Positions 12,761 to 37,217 of a stretch of DNA of 43,320 nucleotides are shown here, piece after piece. A program made the position numbers and the translations under genes. Numbering within the stretch: position 1 is the stretch's first letter; each line of letters opens with the position of its first letter. This stretch comes from Tabrizicola thermarum (GTDB taxonomy: Bacteria > Pseudomonadota > Alphaproteobacteria > Rhodobacterales > Rhodobacteraceae): contig NZ_KZ984536.1 in the NCBI RefSeq assembly GCF_003574395.1, forward strand, positions 1 through 43,320, written 5' to 3'. The notes below the pieces were generated by a model that made no database searches, was not told the DNA's origin, and saw only the letters and a list, made by a program, of their open reading frames with translations.

Positions 12761-13540
12761 ATGTCCGTCGAACCTGCCCCCTATGCCGTCCGACTGGCCA
12801 CCACGCCCGAGGACGTGACGGCCGCGCAGGCCTTGCGCTATCAGGTCTTCGTGCGCGAGCTTGGCGGTGACGGCCCGCTGGTCGACCATGACCGGGGATT
12901 GGAGCGCGACGACTTCGACCCGTATTTCGACCACCTGATCCTCGTCGACAGCCGCATCGACCCCGCCAGTCACGCCCATGTCATCGGCGCCTACCGCATC
13001 CTGCCCTCCGACCGCCGCGCCGCCGCAGGGCGGTTCTATTCCGAGACCGAGTTCGACCTGACCCCCCTCCTCGCCTCGGGCCGCAAGCTCCTGGAGCTCG
13101 GCCGGTCCTGCGTCCATGCCGATCATCGCGGCGGCACCGCGATGTTCCACCTCTGGAACGGGCTGGCCGAATATGTGCTCGACCGCGGGATCGAGGTGCT
13201 GTTCGGTGCCGCCTCCTTCCACGGCACCGACATCCCGGCCCTGGCCCAGCCGCTGGCCTATCTGCACCACAACCACCTTGCCCCGCCCGAGATGCGGGTC
13301 CGCGCCCTGCCCCCGCACCGGCAGGACATGGACCTGGTGCCGAAGGACCGGCTCGACCGCCGCGCCGCAATGGCGGCCACACCGGCGCTCATCAAGGCCT
13401 ACCTGCGGCTCGGCGGCTTTGTCGGCGACGGGGCCTGGATCGACCGCGATTTCAACACCACCGATGTCTGCCTGGTGATGGACACCGGCCAGATGTCGGC
13501 CCGCCACCGCGAGTTCTACATCCGCAAGGCCGGATCATGA
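12761..13540 (+). CDS. olsB: Ornithine N-acyltransferase OlsB
   Basis: Encodes 259 aa of the OlsB/acyl-homoserine-lactone-synthase-like GNAT family. OlsB transfers a 3-hydroxyacyl group from acyl carrier protein to the alpha amine of ornithine, making lyso-ornithine lipid. Family landmarks are ALRYQVFVRELGG, DHLILVD, VIGAYRILPSDRR, LELGRSCVHADHRGG and GAASFHGTD. The stop overlaps the start of olsA as ATGA, so the two enzymes are translationally coupled. This gene order is the standard ornithine-lipid operon of alphaproteobacteria. Confidence 0.92.
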   Translation: MSVEPAPYAVRLATTPEDVTAAQALRYQVFVRELGGDGPLVDHDRGLERDDFDPYFDHLILVDSRIDPASHAHVIGAYRILPSDRRAAAGRFYSETEFDLTPLLASGRKLLELGRSCVHADHRGGTAMFHLWNGLAEYVLDRGIEVLFGAASFHGTDIPALAQPLAYLHHNHLAPPEMRVRALPPHRQDMDLVPKDRLDRRAAMAATPALIKAYLRLGGFVGDGAWIDRDFNTTDVCLVMDTGQMSARHREFYIRKAGS

Positions 13541-20332: not shown

Positions 20333-20422
<90 letters not shown>

Positions 20423-20771: not shown

Positions 20772-22529
20772 ATGGCAGCACAAGATAATCAGAATTTGGA
20801 GGGCCAGTTCTTCACTTGGTTGAAGACCTTCCTGAAGGACAAAGGGCTGCAGTTCTCCAAGTGTGGCTTCAAGACCAGAGATGGGCTTGGCGAACGCCAC
20901 GAATTCGATCTCGCCGCTGGGTACTGGAAAGAACCGAACTATTCCGCGAACAAGCCCCCGCGATGGATCTATCGCATAATTCCCGAGCCCGCTGGGCTTC
21001 GCGCTGAAAACCCCGCTGGCGGTCCATTCAACCTAGGTGCGATCAACACGGCGCAGGAAGACAAGGCGGGTGTAGTGTTCCGTCTTGTGCCGCTGATCCA
21101 GCAGGGGCCGGGTGACTTTGTCCAAGACAAGAGCTTCGAGGTTCACGCGCTATTTGTCTTTCACGGTGCAACCCCACAAGGGTCGTCTGCCGAACCGTTC
21201 AATTTCGATCCCGCGACAGGAGCGATGCGCTTCAAGGGGGCTCCTCTGGTGTACATCGGCTGCGGCCTGCTCGGTCTGATGCCGCGCGACACCGAGTTGA
21301 AGATCACGGAGAACGGCATGGAGCGCACGATCACCTATGGAGATGTGATCGACGCACTCGCAGCGGACATCAAATGCGCGCCGGCAGGAAATCCAGCTGC
21401 TCCAATCCCGGTCTACGATCTCACAGCGCAAGCCGAAGTTGATCGACTCAAGAAAATGGTCGCGGACGCTTGGGCGGCGGCCGGGCCTGCGACGCCAAAG
21501 AATGTTGCAGTCGCTGCAGTTGACGGCGACGAAAATGACGATGACGGTGAAATTATTCCGCCCGAGTCTCTCGAGATTCCGGAGAACACGGACCTTCTTG
21601 GCATCGATCCCACTGTATATCGCCAAATCAATGCGGCGCTGAAATCGGGCAAGCAGCACATCATGCTGTATGGTCCACCTGGAACCGGGAAGACAACTCT
21701 CGCGCGCTGGATTGCAGCAACCCTCACTGGCGGGAAGTGGACCCTCGTGACAGGTTCGTCAGACTGGAGTTCGCAAGACATCATCGGGGGGTACCAACCA
21801 GTAGGCGCTGGCGCCGTTGCCTTCATTCCTGGCGTCTTGCTTCGTCGCTTTGATCGTCCGTTGATCATCGACGAACTTAATCGTTGCGACATCGATAAGG
21901 TGATCGGTCCGCTTTTTACGGTCTTGAGCGGCCAGCAGACCACTTTGCCCTACAGGCTAAACATCGAGGACAAAGATAGCCCGCAATATGTGATCTTGCC
22001 AGAAAGCAAGCCCTCGGCAGAGCCATACGAGTTCGCGCCAGGCCCGCACTGGCGGCTGATCGCAACCATCAATTCCATCGACAAGGCCGCTCTGTATCAG
22101 ATGTCCTATGCCCTCAGCCGCCGATTTGGCTGGGTCTATGTCGACGTGCCGCGCGACACGGCTGGTTTCATTGAGTCTTTTATCAGAAAGTCTGATCCAA
22201 CTTGGGCTGGGCCTGCTGCGGGCGCACCTTGTCCGCTTGGCGCTTTCTGGGCGGCCATCAACAAGGTTCGTGTCCTTGGACCCGCCCCGATCATTGATGC
22301 AATCAAGGCCGTCCAGGCGATGGATGATGGCGCAGACTTCTTCGCTGTCCCTACGCCCTCGATGCGAGAGGCTTTGCTCGATGCGGTGGACATGGTGTTG
22401 CTGCCGATGCTCGACGGGATTGTGGTCCAGGATGCCGACTTCCTTGCGCAAGCGGCCGTAGACGCCTTCGGCCTTGATGCGGACTCCAGTGATCGGATCA
22501 AGCGGCGGATGGAGTCGGTTGCGGTCTGA
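20772..22529 (+). CDS. McrB-like AAA+ ATPase/GTPase
   Basis: Encodes 585 aa. Residues 1 to about 230 are an unassigned, probably substrate-recognising N-terminal region, followed by an acidic linker (DGDENDDDGE). The AAA_5-type motor has Walker A GPPGTGKT (301-308), Walker B LIIDELNR (364-371), sensor-1 ATINSIDK (N434) and an arginine pair in ALSRRF (450-451). The IIDELNR and NSID...ALSRRF segments resemble McrB. The stop overlaps the next start as TGATG, coupling it to an McrC-like nuclease. Together they form an McrBC-like restriction pair that would cleave modified or foreign DNA. Nucleotide (GTP or ATP) is not decidable here. Confidence 0.8.
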   Translation: MAAQDNQNLEGQFFTWLKTFLKDKGLQFSKCGFKTRDGLGERHEFDLAAGYWKEPNYSANKPPRWIYRIIPEPAGLRAENPAGGPFNLGAINTAQEDKAGVVFRLVPLIQQGPGDFVQDKSFEVHALFVFHGATPQGSSAEPFNFDPATGAMRFKGAPLVYIGCGLLGLMPRDTELKITENGMERTITYGDVIDALAADIKCAPAGNPAAPIPVYDLTAQAEVDRLKKMVADAWAAAGPATPKNVAVAAVDGDENDDDGEIIPPESLEIPENTDLLGIDPTVYRQINAALKSGKQHIMLYGPPGTGKTTLARWIAATLTGGKWTLVTGSSDWSSQDIIGGYQPVGAGAVAFIPGVLLRRFDRPLIIDELNRCDIDKVIGPLFTVLSGQQTTLPYRLNIEDKDSPQYVILPESKPSAEPYEFAPGPHWRLIATINSIDKAALYQMSYALSRRFGWVYVDVPRDTAGFIESFIRKSDPTWAGPAAGAPCPLGAFWAAINKVRVLGPAPIIDAIKAVQAMDDGADFFAVPTPSMREALLDAVDMVLLPMLDGIVVQDADFLAQAAVDAFGLDADSSDRIKRRMESVAV

Positions 22530-23758
22530 TGGAGGGGATCGACCGAGCGATTTCCGACTTTGCAGCAGGAATCTTCCTCCGGCATTTCCGGTCTGGGACG
22601 CTTCTCGGTGCTGACCGGCCGTCGCTTGACCTTGCCCGCGATCTCGAACTCCTTCGCGCGCACTGGGCGATCTCAGCGCCGGTTCGGGAGTTCGTTCAAT
22701 ATCTCCTTGCCCATCGGCACGAAGCGCAGGCGCTACTGCAATTCCAGAGACGAACAGATGACGCAGTCGCGCGCGGAAGGATCGATGCCCGGGCTTCGGT
22801 TATTGCGCGAAGGGTGTCCGGGCACCCGTCTCTGATTGTCTCGGAAGAGCCTGTGAGATCGTTCAACACGGGGCCAAACCAAGTCGTCGCTTGGGTTGTG
22901 CACATGGCCGCAACTCATGCCGAGCGGCTGTTTGCGATGCAGCCCAAGAATTCGGCCTATGCTGCCCTGATCGAGGCGGCGATGACGGAAATTGCAGCGG
23001 TGAAGCGGCTTGACGCTTTGCGAGAACCGCTGAAGCACGTGACGGCTGGACGAAGGCCGGGGCCAAACGCCGTAAGGGATGCAGCGCGGTCGCGACGACT
23101 GATCTATCGCTATGCGATTGCGGCCTACACGACGTTGACGGGGGTCGAAGCTGGCGACGAAGCCGCGCTTTCACGTGTCCTTCGAAGCACGCTCATCGGG
23201 CCGCTTGAGGAGTGGCGTCGTTTCGAATTGGCCGTTGCGGCGGGACTCGGGGAAGCGCTGTCTGCGGAACTCGGCCTTCCGCTGCGTCTGTCTGTACTTG
23301 ATGCTCGGCCAGGACAGCCAGTCTTGCGCTGCGGGCGGTACTCGGTTTTCTGGCAGTCAGGCGGCGGTCTGTACGTGCCACCTGCGCTGGAGCCATCTGA
23401 GCTGCGGCTTGAAGCCGTTCTCGCTGCATACGGGATGGCTGCAGCAGCGGATCGTCCGGACCTAGTAATTGTCGACGACGAAGCTGGAAGCGTGGCGGCC
23501 ATCGTCGAGGTCAAGTATCTGGCGGGCGATACGGCAAATGCGCGTTTCCGTGAAGCCGCGGGTCAGATCGTTCGGTATGGGCGGGGATATTGTGGCGAAG
23601 CCGAATTGCCCTCGCTGATCCGCCGGTCACTGATTGCTCTAAGCCGCGAAGTCCCCTCACTCATCGATGACACAGCGGACGCGCCCCGTGCGGTGGACTT
23701 CGCGGGGATACTGGATGGGCGGCTCAATTCTTGGGTCAGGGAGCGCCTTTTTGCTTAA
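22529..23758 (+). CDS. McrC-like PD-(D/E)XK nuclease subunit
   Basis: Encodes 409 aa. The N-terminal two thirds are helical with no recognised domain. The C-terminal part carries a nuclease motif: RPDLVIVDDE (D311), then about 15 residues on, AIVEVKYL (E327, K329), as in McrC and other restriction-family nucleases. It starts within the stop of the McrB-like gene. Its 3' end overlaps the convergent GIY-YIG gene by 23 bp. Base use is less GC-rich than the core genes, which fits horizontal acquisition. McrC identity is inferred from motif and partner. Confidence 0.7.
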   Translation: MEGIDRAISDFAAGIFLRHFRSGTLLGADRPSLDLARDLELLRAHWAISAPVREFVQYLLAHRHEAQALLQFQRRTDDAVARGRIDARASVIARRVSGHPSLIVSEEPVRSFNTGPNQVVAWVVHMAATHAERLFAMQPKNSAYAALIEAAMTEIAAVKRLDALREPLKHVTAGRRPGPNAVRDAARSRRLIYRYAIAAYTTLTGVEAGDEAALSRVLRSTLIGPLEEWRRFELAVAAGLGEALSAELGLPLRLSVLDARPGQPVLRCGRYSVFWQSGGGLYVPPALEPSELRLEAVLAAYGMAAAADRPDLVIVDDEAGSVAAIVEVKYLAGDTANARFREAAGQIVRYGRGYCGEAELPSLIRRSLIALSREVPSLIDDTADAPRAVDFAGILDGRLNSWVRERLFA

Positions 23759-33699: not shown

Positions 33700-35388
33700 A
33701 TGCGCCTGCGCCCCCGCCAGAAGACCTTCGTCGAGCGCAGCGTGGCTGCGCTCACCTCCCGCGGCAACACGCTGGGCGTGGCGCCCACCGGTGCGGGCAA
33801 GACCATCATGCTCTCGGCGGTCACCGGCGAGTTGATTGGCAACGGCGCCAAGGCATGCGTGCTGGCCCATCGCGACGAGTTGACGGCGCAGAACCGCGCC
33901 AAGTTCCAGCGCGTGGTGCCGGGCGTCGCCACCTCGGTCATCGACGCCACCGAGAAGTCCTGGGGCGGCCAGGTCGCCTTCGCCATGGTGCCGACGCTGG
34001 CGCGGGCTTCGAACCTTGCCGACATGCCGCGTCTCGACCTGCTGGTCGTGGATGAGGCGCACCATGCCGTCGCCGACAGCTACCGCCGCATCATCGACCG
34101 GGTACGCGAGGCCAATCCCGACGCCCGCATCTTCGGGGTCACGGCCACCCCGAACCGGGGCGACAAGAAGGGGCTGCGTGAGGTCTTCGACAATGTCGCC
34201 GATCAGGTGCGGCTGGGCGAGCTGATCGCCTCGGGCCACCTGGTGCCGCCGCGCACCTTCGTCATCGACGTGGGCGTGCAGGACGAGTTGCGCTCGGTCC
34301 GCAAGACCATGTCGGATTTCGACATGGCGGAGGTGGCGGGCATCATGGACCGCGCCCCCGTCACCGACGAGGTGATCCGCCACTGGAAGGAGAAGGCAGG
34401 CGACCGGCAGACCGTGGTGTTCTGCTCCACCGTCGCGCATGCCGAGCATGGCACTGACGCGTTCAGGGCAGCTGGCGTTTCCGCCGCGCTGATCCACGGC
34501 GATCTGGCGGCCGAGACCCGCAAGGCGATCCTCGCCGACTACGCGGCGGGCGGCATCCGCGTCGTGGTCAACGTGGCGGTGCTGACCGAGGGCTGGGACC
34601 ACCCGCCCACCTCCTGCGTCGTGCTGCTGCGGCCCAGTTCCTACAAGTCCACGATGATCCAGATGGTCGGGCGCGGCCTGCGCACCGTCGATCCCGAGGA
34701 ACACCCCGGCATCGTGAAGACAGACTGCATTGTCCTCGACTTCGGCACCTCGAGCCTCATCCACGGCACATTGGAGCAGGATGTCGATCTGGACGGCAAG
34801 ACCGAGGCTGGTGACGCCCCAACGAAATCCTGCCCCGGCTGCGGCGCCGATATTCCGCTGGCCGCCACCGAATGCCCGCTCTGCGGCGAGGCGTTCCCGC
34901 GCGAGGACGAAGAGGCCGGTGAAGGTGGCGGTGCCGCGCCGCTGTCGGGCTTCATGATGACCGAGATCGACCTGCTGAAGCGGTCCAGCTTCGCGTGGGT
35001 CGACCTCTACGGCACGGACGACGCGCTGATGGCCACGGGCTTCGCGGCCTGGGGCGGCATCTTCTGGCTGGACGGGGTCTGGTACGCAATCGGCGGGGCC
35101 AAAGGCGAACGCCCGCATCTGCTGGGCGTGGGCGAACGGACCGTCTGCCTCGCACAGGCGGACGACTGGCTGAACACCCATGAGACCGACGAGAGCGCCT
35201 TCAAGACGCGCTCCTGGTTGCGCCAGCCGCCGACCGAAAAGCAGCTGCAATACCTGCCGCCCGAGTGCCGCCATGACTTCGGCCTGACGCGCTATCGCGC
35301 CTCGGCGCTGATGACCTTCGGCTTCAACAAGCGCGCCATCCGCCAGTTGATCGACACGGCGGCCTCTCCCGAACGGAGGGCTGCGTAA
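33700..35388 (+). CDS. SF2 DEAD/DEAH-box helicase
   Basis: Encodes 562 aa. Motif I is APTGAGKT, motif II is DEAH (VVDEAHHAV), motif III GVTATPNRG, and the second RecA domain has VNVAVLTEGWDHP and MIQMVGRGLRT (motif VI). A zinc ribbon follows (CPGCGADIPLAATECPLCGEAF) and then a C-terminal domain of about 140 residues. It would unwind DNA in phage replication or recombination. The present TAA stop is provided by the end of the IS110 element; without it the same two-alanine end would be followed by TGA. Confidence 0.9.
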   Translation: MRLRPRQKTFVERSVAALTSRGNTLGVAPTGAGKTIMLSAVTGELIGNGAKACVLAHRDELTAQNRAKFQRVVPGVATSVIDATEKSWGGQVAFAMVPTLARASNLADMPRLDLLVVDEAHHAVADSYRRIIDRVREANPDARIFGVTATPNRGDKKGLREVFDNVADQVRLGELIASGHLVPPRTFVIDVGVQDELRSVRKTMSDFDMAEVAGIMDRAPVTDEVIRHWKEKAGDRQTVVFCSTVAHAEHGTDAFRAAGVSAALIHGDLAAETRKAILADYAAGGIRVVVNVAVLTEGWDHPPTSCVVLLRPSSYKSTMIQMVGRGLRTVDPEEHPGIVKTDCIVLDFGTSSLIHGTLEQDVDLDGKTEAGDAPTKSCPGCGADIPLAATECPLCGEAFPREDEEAGEGGGAAPLSGFMMTEIDLLKRSSFAWVDLYGTDDALMATGFAAWGGIFWLDGVWYAIGGAKGERPHLLGVGERTVCLAQADDWLNTHETDESAFKTRSWLRQPPTEKQLQYLPPECRHDFGLTRYRASALMTFGFNKRAIRQLIDTAASPERRAA

Positions 35389-35396
35389 TGCGGAAG

Positions 35397-36575
35397 TCAA
35401 GCAGCTTTGAAGAGAGGATCGTAGGTCTTTCGGCGCTGGATCATGGTCCAGAGCACGGAGACGCGCCGGCGTGCGAGAGCGATGAGCGCCTGGGTGTGGT
35501 GTTTTCCTTCGCGTCGCTTGCGGTCGTAGAACGCCTTGGAGAGCGGATCCTTTCGACAGACAGCGCAGAAGGCGCCCTGGTAGAAGACGCGCTTGAGGGC
35601 CTTGTCCCCGCCGTAGGTGCGCCGCCAGCCTGCCTTTCGGCCCGACTGCCGGATCACGGGCGCAAGCCCTGCGGCGGAGGCCAGCGCATCGGCCGAGGGG
35701 AAGCGCCGGATGTCGCCGACGCAGGCGATGAACTCTGCCGCGAGCACCGCCCCCATCCCCGGCAGCGACTGGATGAGGGCGCCATCAGGGTGGACGGCGA
35801 GCAGGGCCGCGAGGTCGCGGTCGAGGCGGGCGATCTTCGTCCTGGTTTCGAGTGCTTCGGTGGCCATCTCCCGGACCAGCTCGGCCATGGCCGCCTCGCC
35901 GGGTACGGCGAGCATCTGGGCACGCGCCGCGGCAAGGGCGTGGTCGGCCAGCGCCTCGGCGCCCTGCACATGCGGGGTCTTCGCGAGATGCGCCATGATC
36001 TGCCGCTTTCCGGCATGCCGGATCTCGGCGGGCGTGACGTAGCGGGTCAGCAGGACCAGCGGCCCCTTGCAGGTGACGTCGAGGTCGCGCTCGAGCCCCG
36101 GATGGATGCTGCTCAGGAGCCCGCGCAGGCGACAGAGGTGCCGCGTCTGCTCCTCGATCAGGTCGCGGCGACGGCCGACCTTGAGGCGGATCGCCGTCAC
36201 CGTCTCGTCGTCCGGCAGGATCGGGCGCAGCTCGCGGGTGCGCACCAGGTCGGCGATGGTGCGGGCGTCGCGCGGATCGGACTTGCTCTCGCCCCCGGCA
36301 AAGCCCTGGCCCGCCCGATTGACGGCAATGCCCGGCGCATGGACGAGCCGGAAACCTTCGGCCAGAAGCGACGCGCCGAGGAAATGCGCGAAAGAGCCCA
36401 CCACGTCGAGGCCGATGACCGGCTCGCCGCCAAGCGCACGCAGATCGGCCGCGAAGGAGGCGATCCCCTCCGGCGTGTTCTCCACCGCCCGATCGAGCAG
36501 CGTCCGGCCTGCCTCATCGATGGCACAGGCCCAGTGGATCGCCTTGGCGACATCCATTCCCACAGAAATCCGCAT
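35397..36575 (-). CDS. IS110-family transposase (DEDD recombinase)
   Basis: Encodes 392 aa. The N-terminal RuvC-like domain has Asp8 in VGMDVAKAIHW, Asp57 in VIGLDVVG where the family usually has Glu, and D100/D103 in ESKSDPRDARTIADL. The C-terminal Tnp domain contains IQSLPGMGAVLAAEFI and LASAAGLAPVIRQSG, whose Ser311 is the likely nucleophile. IS110 enzymes use a structured RNA from the element to pair donor and target DNA. The stop codon lies 12 bp inside the helicase-side end. The open 5' region and all motifs are intact, so it appears functional. Confidence 0.95.
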   Translation of the reverse strand: MRISVGMDVAKAIHWACAIDEAGRTLLDRAVENTPEGIASFAADLRALGGEPVIGLDVVGSFAHFLGASLLAEGFRLVHAPGIAVNRAGQGFAGGESKSDPRDARTIADLVRTRELRPILPDDETVTAIRLKVGRRRDLIEEQTRHLCRLRGLLSSIHPGLERDLDVTCKGPLVLLTRYVTPAEIRHAGKRQIMAHLAKTPHVQGAEALADHALAAARAQMLAVPGEAAMAELVREMATEALETRTKIARLDRDLAALLAVHPDGALIQSLPGMGAVLAAEFIACVGDIRRFPSADALASAAGLAPVIRQSGRKAGWRRTYGGDKALKRVFYQGAFCAVCRKDPLSKAFYDRKRREGKHHTQALIALARRRVSVLWTMIQRRKTYDPLFKAA

Positions 36576-36599
36576 GGCGATCCTCCCTCGTTGCCCCGG

Positions 36600-36780
36600 A
36601 CCCGCATGCCCCGTCTCGCCGGCATCGCCTTACAAAGCCATCAGGGGCATCGCGTAATCAGCGGTCGATCAAGGGCGGCGATGCGGGCGGCCCAGCCCTC
36701 CGAGCCATCGGGAACAGCCAGCATGACAGCCATACCCGCATCGCCTGCGCCCAAGCAGCTTCCCACCGACATGGGCGCAT
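36600..36780 (-). ncRNA. Candidate IS110 bridge RNA
   Basis: Read on the minus strand, three stem-loops follow each other. First is TGCGCCCA/TGGGCGCA (36779-36772 with 36753-36746). Second is GGCGATGCGGG/CCCGCATCGCC (36745-36735 with 36687-36677), the target loop. Third is ATGCCCC/GGGGCAT (36650-36644 with 36612-36606), the donor loop. The target loop holds GTCATGC (36727-36721) and CGGAGGGCTG (36702-36693), matching the two flanks. The donor region holds ATTACGC (36658-36652) and GTAAGGCG (36633-36626), matching the two element ends. Length and order agree with the known IS621 bridge RNA. Confidence 0.85.
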
Positions 36781-36806
36781 TGAAAAGAGGTAAGGCGGCA
36801 TGACCC

Positions 36807-37217
36807 ATGTCCACATCCACCCCCATCCCGGCCGAGGACCGGCGGCGGCTCTGGCATCCGCGTGGAACGCTCTGTGCTGTCTGCCGGCAACCCACCCGTG
36901 GTTTTGGCTGGTTCGATCCGCACCGGTCGAAGCGACCCCGGCCCTCGGTCTGGTTCTGCTCGATGCCCTGCCAGTCCTTCTGGACGCGTTTGGCGCGGGA
37001 GCGCTTCGCCATGGTTGACCTGACCGAGGAAGAGCGCGCCGCGATCACCGCCACCATGAAGCGCGTGGCGCTGCTGATGGACGAGATCGGCTGGGCCACC
37101 CCGCTTGCCGACCTGACCGAGGCGCAGGTGCGCGCGCTGATCGAGGAAGCCGTCGAGGGCTTCCGCGAGGCCATGTCCGACATCGCCCGGGCGCAGACGC
37201 CGGAGGTGCCGTTTTGA
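36807..37217 (+). CDS. Cys-rich small protein (DUF6511-like)
   Basis: Encodes 136 aa. An N-terminal zinc-binding candidate has CAVCRQPTRGFGWF and WFCSMPCQSFW (two Cys pairs). The rest is helical (LTEEERAAITATMKRVALL). It resembles proteins labelled DUF6511 in prophage regions of Rhodobacterales. The ATG at 36807 is chosen over 36800, which is in another frame. The IS110 element now separates it from the helicase gene and from the GGAGGG that lay before it. Confidence 0.65.
   Translation: MSTSTPIPAEDRRRLWHPRGTLCAVCRQPTRGFGWFDPHRSKRPRPSVWFCSMPCQSFWTRLARERFAMVDLTEEERAAITATMKRVALLMDEIGWATPLADLTEAQVRALIEEAVEGFREAMSDIARAQTPEVPF

What the first reader, a model, noticed from the sequence alone, without database searches (positions are those of the whole stretch)
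36600..36800. A complete bridge RNA readable in an IS110 element, with all four guides matching ends and flanks
Seen in sequence: the 5' non-coding end of the transposase gene gives three consecutive perfect stems (8, 11 and 7 bp). On the minus strand the second loop contains GTCATGC, identical to the upstream flank plus core (36804-36798), and CGGAGGGCTG, complementary to the other flank (35383-35374 read on the minus strand). The third region contains ATTACGC, identical to the helicase-side element end plus core (35389-35383), and GTAAGGCG, complementary to the other element end (36797-36790). All four sit directly against the GC core on the sides expected from IS621. Known: IS110 elements of this group carry a ~177-nt bridge RNA with a 5' stem-loop, target loop, then donor loop. 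The agreement of order, size and four independent matches makes chance very unlikely.
Basis: partly seen in the sequence, partly recalled or inferred. Interest (0 to 1): 0.93.

Follow-up and report, generated by a model that had tools for sequence, protein, structure and literature searches.

The report
RNA-guided insertion sequence sparing operons
A small jumping DNA appears to carry its own guide RNA, which fits the stop/start junction between two neighbouring genes; its end replaces the stop codon it displaces, and one reading frame opposite its own gene is left open from end to end, which may let the invaded operon keep working.

Summary
The bridge RNA is well supported by sequence. An IS110-group element (35382-36796, minus strand) carries target and donor loops in its 5' non-coding end. 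Covariation supports the fold; a model built from 12 relatives finds it in 8 of 8 Streptomyces relatives. Guides track flanks across 17 elements (0 of 100,000 permutations).

Beyond the finding: the guides spell a Shine-Dalgarno-like stretch plus ATGA stop/start junction. The right end supplies a replacement TAA stop; at most sites the downstream start stays near the left end. A stop-free frame antisense to the transposase runs from TAATG to the target's stop in 10 of 14 complete copies. I read it as a translational relay; that is inference, and controls are only moderately in its favour.

IS900 is a published precedent for target type and element-long antisense ORF. New member of a known kind.

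The parts
35382..36796 (-). IS110-group element, 1415 bp counting one core copy
   Evidence: empty sites; relatives; length
35397..36575 (-). IS110 transposase/recombinase, 392 aa; D8, D57, D100, D103, S311
   Evidence: Pfam, alignment, PDB match
36609..36779 (-). bridge RNA: 5' stem-loop 36779-36746 (from the sequence and fold), then target and donor loops (model hit 36746-36609)
36721..36727 (-). left target guide GTCATGC
36695..36702 (-). right target guide CGGAGG plus core GC
   Evidence: empty sites
36693..36694 (-). target-loop handshake guide TG, complementary to donor CA (35383-35382)
   Evidence: sequence; compared between types by eye; handshake defined in PMC11208158
36652..36658 (-). 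left donor guide ATTACGC
36627..36633 (-). right donor guide GTAAG plus core GC
36795..36796 (-). core GC at the left end (transposase 5' side)
   Evidence: empty sites
35380..35381 (-). core GC at the right end
   Evidence: empty sites
35388..36803 (+). element-long ORF antisense to transposase and bridge RNA; starts in TAATG at the right end, ends at the target's TGA; no Pfam match
35386..35388 (+). TAA stop supplied by the right end to the upstream helicase gene
36800..36803 (+). target ATGA (helicase stop in the empty form; start codon at most other sites)
33700..35388 (+). upstream phage helicase gene, ends ...ERRAA* in the occupied and the empty form
36807..37217 (+). downstream phage gene with DUF6511
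35395..35400 (-). TTGACT, -35-like half of a promoter that the circle junction would form (17 nt to TACCTC)
   Evidence: prediction only
36787..36792 (-). TACCTC, -10-like half of that promoter; on the other strand a Shine-Dalgarno-like GAGGTA
   Evidence: prediction only

Best explanation
This is an IS110-group insertion sequence whose bridge RNA guides a circular form into stop/start junctions of operons. The target loop reads GTCATGC (left guide) and CGGAGG+GC (right guide); on the operon strand the site is a Shine-Dalgarno-like stretch, GC, three bases, ATGA. The donor loop reads the element's own ends (ATTACGC and GTAAG+GC). Recombination at the GC core puts the element antisense to the operon. 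The right end (GCGTAATG) replaces the displaced TGA stop by TAA without changing the helicase protein, and the ATGA is left next to the left end. Shown here by sequence: element borders, guides, guide/flank covariation, RNA fold, target type, stop replacement, and lack of antisense stops in most copies. Inferred: that the RNA is made and guides recombination as shown for IS621; that the element moves as a circle with a junction promoter; and that the open antisense frame serves as a translational relay that keeps ribosomes, and so downstream expression, running through the insert.
For: IS110 domains; IS621/ISCro4 relatives. Empty sites: 91 of 100 loci span the junction, 77 of 91 match the shifted core exactly; three further target loci agree. 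Guide/flank permutations: 0 of 100,000 left and right, 17 elements. Fold: 97.4% of cells paired, 11 of 26 pairs with two-sided changes, 0 of 500 shuffles. Model R1: 8 of 8 Streptomyces relatives, none of 20 other IS110 loci below E 0.1. Annotated empty genes overlap by 4 nt in L184 and L185; annotated starts and stops fit the ends in L040, L041, L045. Antisense ORF. Antisense-stop codons and controls.
Against: No RNA or transposition data. Only one copy in the host genome. In the window the downstream gene starts 7 nt past the ATGA, so the site is a stop codon rather than a true overlap. L020 and L022 have no convincing downstream gene and L018 lies inside a transposase gene. Four of 14 complete copies have a broken antisense frame, and 3 of 6 Streptomyces elements. 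With a cleaner control 6 of 21 other IS110 genes are also free of antisense stops. The left guide does not pair with target position 7. Empty sites for L039 and for the permease site are too diverged to decide the core.
Confidence: 0.88

Rival explanations
1. The antisense ORF codes for a functional protein (a Hed-like product) that is selected as a protein.
For: It spans the element from an ATG behind a host Shine-Dalgarno-like stretch to the target's stop. IS900 carries an element-long antisense ORF named hed, and the title of Doran 1997 speaks of facilitating its expression.
Against: No Pfam match. In the six pairs whose sense third positions have diverged (identity 0.42-0.56), antisense amino-acid identity is 0.32-0.50 against 0.53-0.83 for the transposase. 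The frame also runs through the guide loops.
Confidence: 0.12
2. The open antisense frame is a by-product of GC-rich codon usage, with no function.
For: In high-GC hosts the aligned antisense frame is often open: 8 of 47 host ORFs, 5 of 17 annotated Streptomyces genes, 6 of 21 other IS110 genes, 6 of 15 at GC3 of 0.7 or more. For L045 the within-gene test gives p=0.27 and for L024 p=0.07.
Against: In lower-GC rhizobial hosts it is rarer (1 of 7 and 1 of 13 annotated genes; 0 of 10 ORFs), yet L038, L039, L040, L041 and L023 have none of the stop-making codons although other A-ending codons are common. 9 of 10 clade genes against 6 of 21 controls gives p=0.002, against 6 of 15 GC3-matched p=0.018, relatedness ignored.
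Confidence: 0.35
3. The guide matches and conserved ends are coincidence or simple end conservation, not RNA guiding.
For: Each single match is short and reached by 54 to 891 of 20,000 shuffles.
Against: All four together 0 of 20,000; guides of different sequence match their own flanks, 0 of 100,000 permutations; fold covariation.
Confidence: 0.02
4. The core is where the first reader put it (36799-36798 / 35384-35383) and the empty-site difference is a point mutation.
For: With that core the left guides touch the core directly.
Against: 0 of 89 empty junctions fit it while 77 of 91 fit the shifted core exactly; three other target loci fit only the shifted core; Streptomyces relatives align on the shifted core.
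Confidence: 0.03

Closest known systems
IS621 and ISCro4 (IS110 group, bridge RNA recombinases)
   Same: RNA upstream of the transposase; target loop then donor loop; left and right guides; core dinucleotide in the right guides; handshake guide; same two domains; promoter at the circle junction (prediction here).
   Different: GC core instead of CT; target is a Shine-Dalgarno-like/ATGA junction rather than REP sequences; Asp where ISCro4 has Glu (the IS621 E60 position by inference); left guides end one base before the core in the alphaproteobacterial members; distant in sequence (phmmer E 2.4e-9 and 3.5e-11).
IS900 of Mycobacterium avium subsp. paratuberculosis (IS110 family)
   Same: Published target motif CATGNNNNNNTCTCCTT, read by me as start codon plus Shine-Dalgarno; an antisense ORF (hed) spans the whole element; rarely inserts within coding sequences (PMC8141618, passages read). 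Its length 1451 and this element's 1415 are both 2 modulo 3.
   Different: IS900 sequence was not fetched or compared; whether it has matching guides was not tested. In the printed description hed lacks its own start codon; here the ATG lies in the element.
seekRNA of IS1111 and IS110 types (PMC11187229, passages read)
   Same: Same idea of a non-coding-region RNA that selects the target.
   Different: Other elements; no start-codon targeting and no IS900 in the passages and counts seen.

Membership tests
IS110 family | RuvC-like DEDD domain plus Transposase_20 domain | tested here: met
   PF01548 E 8.9e-36, PF02371 E 5.2e-24
IS110 family | Catalytic D-E-D-D plus serine | tested here: inconclusive
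   D8, D100, D103, S311 invariant in 15; the E position, placed by the alignment to ISCro4, is Asp in 14 of 15 clade members and His in L057. Activity not testable here
IS110 group (not IS1111) | Long non-coding left end with the RNA upstream of the transposase | tested here: met
   219 nt between core and ATG at the left end, 15 nt at the right end; model hit at the left end
Bridge RNA systems | Two internal loops whose guides pair with target and donor around a shared core | tested here: met
Bridge RNA systems | Conserved RNA secondary structure | tested here: met
   no Rfam match in the element
Bridge RNA systems | Guides covary with flanking target between elements | tested here: met
   0 of 100,000 permutations, 17 elements
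Bridge RNA systems | RNA is expressed and directs recombination | not testable with these tools
   needs bench work
IS900-like elements | Target is Shine-Dalgarno plus start codon | tested here: met
   reconstructed sites, annotated genes, Pfam of downstream genes. Met for most relatives; in the window the ATGA is a stop and the downstream start is 7 nt further
IS900-like elements | Element-long antisense ORF | tested here: met
   window and 10 of 14 complete copies in all
IS900-like elements | Sequence relationship to IS900 | not tested
   IS900 was not fetched

The most novel reading that the evidence does not exclude
The element-long antisense ORF is not a gene for a protein but a translational relay. 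The bridge RNA places the element exactly where an upstream stop (TAA overlapping ATG) hands ribosomes to the antisense frame and that frame's end (the target's ATGA) hands them to the downstream start, so the operon stays translated and free of polarity through the insert. Guide, ends and transposase codon choice would have evolved together for insertions that do the host little harm, and the same would explain IS900's hed.
Probability: 0.4. Interest if true: 0.82.

Novelty: new member of a known kind. Interest (0 to 1): 0.6.

Why it matters
It offers a bridge RNA reading of a long-known kind of target choice (insertion at translation starts, as in IS900). It shows with empty sites that a core read from one occupied site can be off by a few bases. 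It also raises a testable idea: a mobile element whose guide RNA, ends and antisense frame together keep the invaded operon translated. If true, bridge recombinases of this clade could place cargo between genes of an operon with little damage.

Tried and rejected
Energy of the single sequence: no signal (z -0.43), so covariation was used.

Codon-preserving synonymous shuffles for the antisense frame: uninformative, because the antisense frame is aligned with the codons and shuffling keeps the TTA/CTA/TCA counts. Replaced by host genes, other IS110 genes and within-gene comparison. The first control with other IS110 genes gave 2 of 16 open, but its ORFs ran past the true start and it used 17 of 30 loci. 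Redone from the domain match with trimmed starts, 6 of the 21 loci (of 29) with at least 290 codons are open, 6 of 15 at GC3 of 0.7 or more. That weakens the contrast (p=0.002 and 0.018, relatedness ignored), and I lowered the relay odds from 0.45 to 0.40 and raised the by-product rival from 0.30 to 0.35. The pooled within-gene value (0 of 433 against 144 of 1554) treats related elements as independent and overstates; host genes also use CTA+TCA less than other A-ending codons (ratio 0.26 to 0.74). ORF-based host figures not quoted elsewhere: S. alkalisoli 1 of 9, Shinella 2 of 17, Streptomyces 2 of 19.

One search read three partial relatives (L034, L035, L036) on the wrong strand; recounted on the right strand, with the same result (no TTA/CTA/TCA).

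More copies in the host genome: none. Phage records: none. Viral contigs: one. Close relatives are sparse: 4 of 295 family genomes and 2 of 387 class genomes, the window's own included in each. A search for GGAGGGCNGCATGA in the host genome found no match, so unoccupied sites could not be counted there. Empty forms of the permease site: 29 of 32 genus genomes match the joined flanks (two separate pieces in G002 itself) but, outside G002, at 73-84% identity; junctions shown by the script for 5 loci were too diverged to decide the core.

Papers: no hit in the held library for IS900 with bridge RNA or for IS900 with ribosome binding site and start codon; hits for bridge RNA with Shine-Dalgarno, IS110 family with start codon and antisense, IS110 with stop and start codon, IS110 with Shine-Dalgarno and IS110 with translational coupling looked unrelated in the listings; of these only PMC7823733 was opened (passages; nothing on IS900 targets). 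Subscription papers and preprints are not held. Doran 1997 was not read, only its title.

Dropped or partial rows: L055 and L056 were not analysed end to end for the antisense frame. L046 has one in-frame stop and no model hit. L023's transposase has one in-frame stop and L042's has four. The model search used 20 of the 29 other IS110 loci, some cut by contig ends. The empty-site set is 80 viral loci kept from at least 597 plus 20 genome loci; it includes the window itself and L106 (same contig as L027), both occupied.

Full report
What was checked. The minus strand of 36780-36600 lies upstream of a 392-aa IS110 transposase (PF01548 E 8.9e-36, PF02371 E 5.2e-24; the two PDB matches are ISCro4 and IS621). 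Taken together, with the corrected core, they are not reached in 20,000 dinucleotide shuffles of the 219-nt region, although each alone is reached 54 to 891 times. Folding energy alone is not unusual. Rfam has no match in the element.

Relatives. One copy is in the host genome. A genome of the same genus (G002; its contig C1 has the length, 333,208 bases, and the same matched end as Rhodobacter sp. YIM 73028 Scaffold1) has four element ends at contig ends: the same phage site (L002), two ends (L014, L019) whose flanks are adjacent in other genomes of the genus next to an ABC-3 permease gene, and a copy inside what I take from its reading frame to be an IS5-type transposase gene (L018). Further relatives came from Chelativorans, Paracoccus, Neorhizobium galegae (two copies), Sinorhizobium fredii NGR234 (two), Mesorhizobium, Shinella, S. 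alkalisoli, R. gallicum, Rhodobacteraceae MAGs, and, at 42-51% identity, Streptomyces plasmids.

RNA fold. On 12 relatives the consensus fold keeps 97.4% of cells paired; 11 of 26 pairs have changes on both sides; none of 500 shuffles reaches any of the five measures, and sliding the partners lowers all of them (the fold was derived from the same alignment, which favours it). A covariance model of these 12 finds the RNA in 8 of 8 Streptomyces relatives L051-L058 (E 2e-16 to 1e-10), upstream of the transposase, and in none of 20 other IS110 loci below E 0.1 (one at 0.7); one hit at E 0.036 lies elsewhere in the window.

Guides follow flanks. Guide types differ and so do the flanks: window right guide CGGAGG-GC with right flank GC-CCTCCG; N. 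galegae CAGGTG-GC with GC-CACCTC (one mismatch at the far end); Shinella CGGGAG-GC with GC-CTCCCG; Streptomyces NBC_00376 left guide GACAAGTGGC with flank GACAAGTG-GC. Over 17 elements own guides match own flanks better than in any of 100,000 permutations, left (mean 6.47 of 8 against 5.30 for others) and right (6.59 against 5.12).

Of 100 loci holding the phage helicase gene or its C-terminal part, 91 run uninterrupted across the junction, and 77 of these read CGGAGGGCGGCATGA, exactly the join predicted with the core GC at 36796-36795 and 35381-35380. Empty sites at three other target loci (N. galegae HAMBI 540, A. pusense, S. cellulosae NBC 01657) also fit only the shifted core; the one for NGR234 is too diverged. 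With this core the right target guide is CGGAGG plus GC and the right donor guide GTAAG plus GC. The next two bases of the target loop, TG, complement CA of the donor end. In the Shinella type they are AG with CT, in Streptomyces NBC_00376 TT with AA (compared by eye). That is the position and behaviour of the IS621 target-loop handshake guide (PMC11208158, passages read). The donor-loop handshake bases (GA) fit the target at one of two positions only. The left guides stop one base before the core in the alphaproteobacterial elements.

What the target is. Read on the operon strand the sites are a Shine-Dalgarno-like stretch, GC, three bases, and mostly ATGA (L020 has TTGA, L038 GTGA). In the two empty sites with annotation the two genes overlap by 4 nt, that is ATGA. 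In L040, L041 and L045 the annotated downstream start codon lies 3 nt from the shifted core and the annotated upstream stop is the TAA inside the right end. Downstream genes at seven further sites have Pfam matches: oligopeptide ABC ATPase, sulfatase, short-chain dehydrogenase, sigma-54 response regulator, a 2Fe-2S/FAD protein, a BPD_transp_2 permease, an ABC-3 permease. L024's downstream ORF of 95 aa has no match; L020 and L022 have no convincing downstream gene. In the window the ATGA carries the helicase stop, and the downstream DUF6511 gene starts 7 nt later.

How the genes are spared. The element lies antisense to the operon. Its right end reads GCGTAATG (GCCTAATG or GAGTAATG in other types). 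The helicase ends ERRAA* in the common empty form (GCG GCA TGA) and in the occupied form (GCT GCG TAA). In 10 of 12 other complete sites an upstream frame of at least 98 codons runs into this TAA; L038 and L020 are the exceptions. The left end reads GAGGTAAG-GC or AAGGTAGG-GC on the operon strand, Shine-Dalgarno-like at a fixed distance from the ATG. The same bases are the -10-like half of a promoter that the circle junction would form (TTGACT, 17 nt, TACCTC), so their conservation has two possible reasons.

The antisense frame. From TAATG at the right end an ORF runs through transposase and bridge RNA to the target's stop in 10 of 14 complete copies (8 distinct elements if same-element copies and L027 with the window are counted once); L044 and L039 (one element), L022 and L042 are broken. 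Of six Streptomyces elements examined, L051 and L052 do the same; L053 is open but lacks TAATG; three are closed. The frame is aligned with the transposase codons, so an antisense stop is a TTA, CTA or TCA codon. These are absent from window, L020, L024, L038, L039, L040, L041, L045 and L023, with one in L022 and four in the degenerate L042. Five more relatives have none: L037, L034/L021, L035, L036 (partial genes but for L037) and L046, which has an in-frame stop of its own.

Controls for the frame. Host genes of at least 392 codons are open in 8 of 47 (host), 0 of 10 (N. galegae) ORFs and 1 of 7, 1 of 13, 5 of 17 annotated genes of S. alkalisoli, Shinella and Streptomyces. Other IS110 genes from related genomes: 6 of 21 open, 6 of 15 at GC3 of 0.7 or more; against 9 of 10 in the clade this gives p=0.002 and 0.018, relatedness ignored. 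Within eight intact clade genes other four-fold boxes end in A 144 times of 1554, the CTN and TCN boxes 0 of 433, against host ratios of 0.26 to 0.74. Antisense amino acids are poorly conserved once third positions have diverged (0.32-0.50 in six pairs). The strongest cases are the lower-GC rhizobial elements; for the window itself and other high-GC hosts an open frame is not rare. The pattern fits selection for an open frame rather than for a protein, but the samples are small and related, so I hold the relay idea at 0.40.

Known or new. RNA-guided IS110 elements are known (PMC11208160 and PMC11208158, passages read; PMC11187229, passages read). Targeting of translation initiation signals (title of Doran 1997) and an element-long antisense ORF are known for IS900 (PMC8141618, passages read). 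I found no paper in the held library that joins IS900 with bridge RNA, but that library lacks subscription papers and preprints. So the element is a new member of a known kind; the open antisense frame as a translational relay is the bold part. The Asp at the position of ISCro4's Glu (14 of 15 clade members) is a second difference whose effect is unknown.

Noticed in passing
window 20333-20422 and 20772-23758: A tRNA-Ser gene followed by an AAA_5 ATPase ORF (McrB-like by recall) and an ORF overlapping it by one base; may be a defence pair at an integration site.
   Followed up: no
L195 (G000 contig C65) and G000 contig C5:44726-44962, just beyond the window: Two further matches to the IS110 Transposase_20 domain in the host genome.
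   Followed up: partly
window 35397-36575, residue D57: Asp instead of Glu at a catalytic position, in 14 of 15 clade members.
   Followed up: partly
L030:1860-1997: A Paracoccus sp. TOH plasmid holds a left-end remnant with a good model hit (130.8 bits) but no annotated transposase in the stretch.
   Followed up: no
   Followed up: partly
window 13357-13433: Weak model hit (18.3 bits, E 0.036) on the plus strand, probably chance.
   Followed up: no
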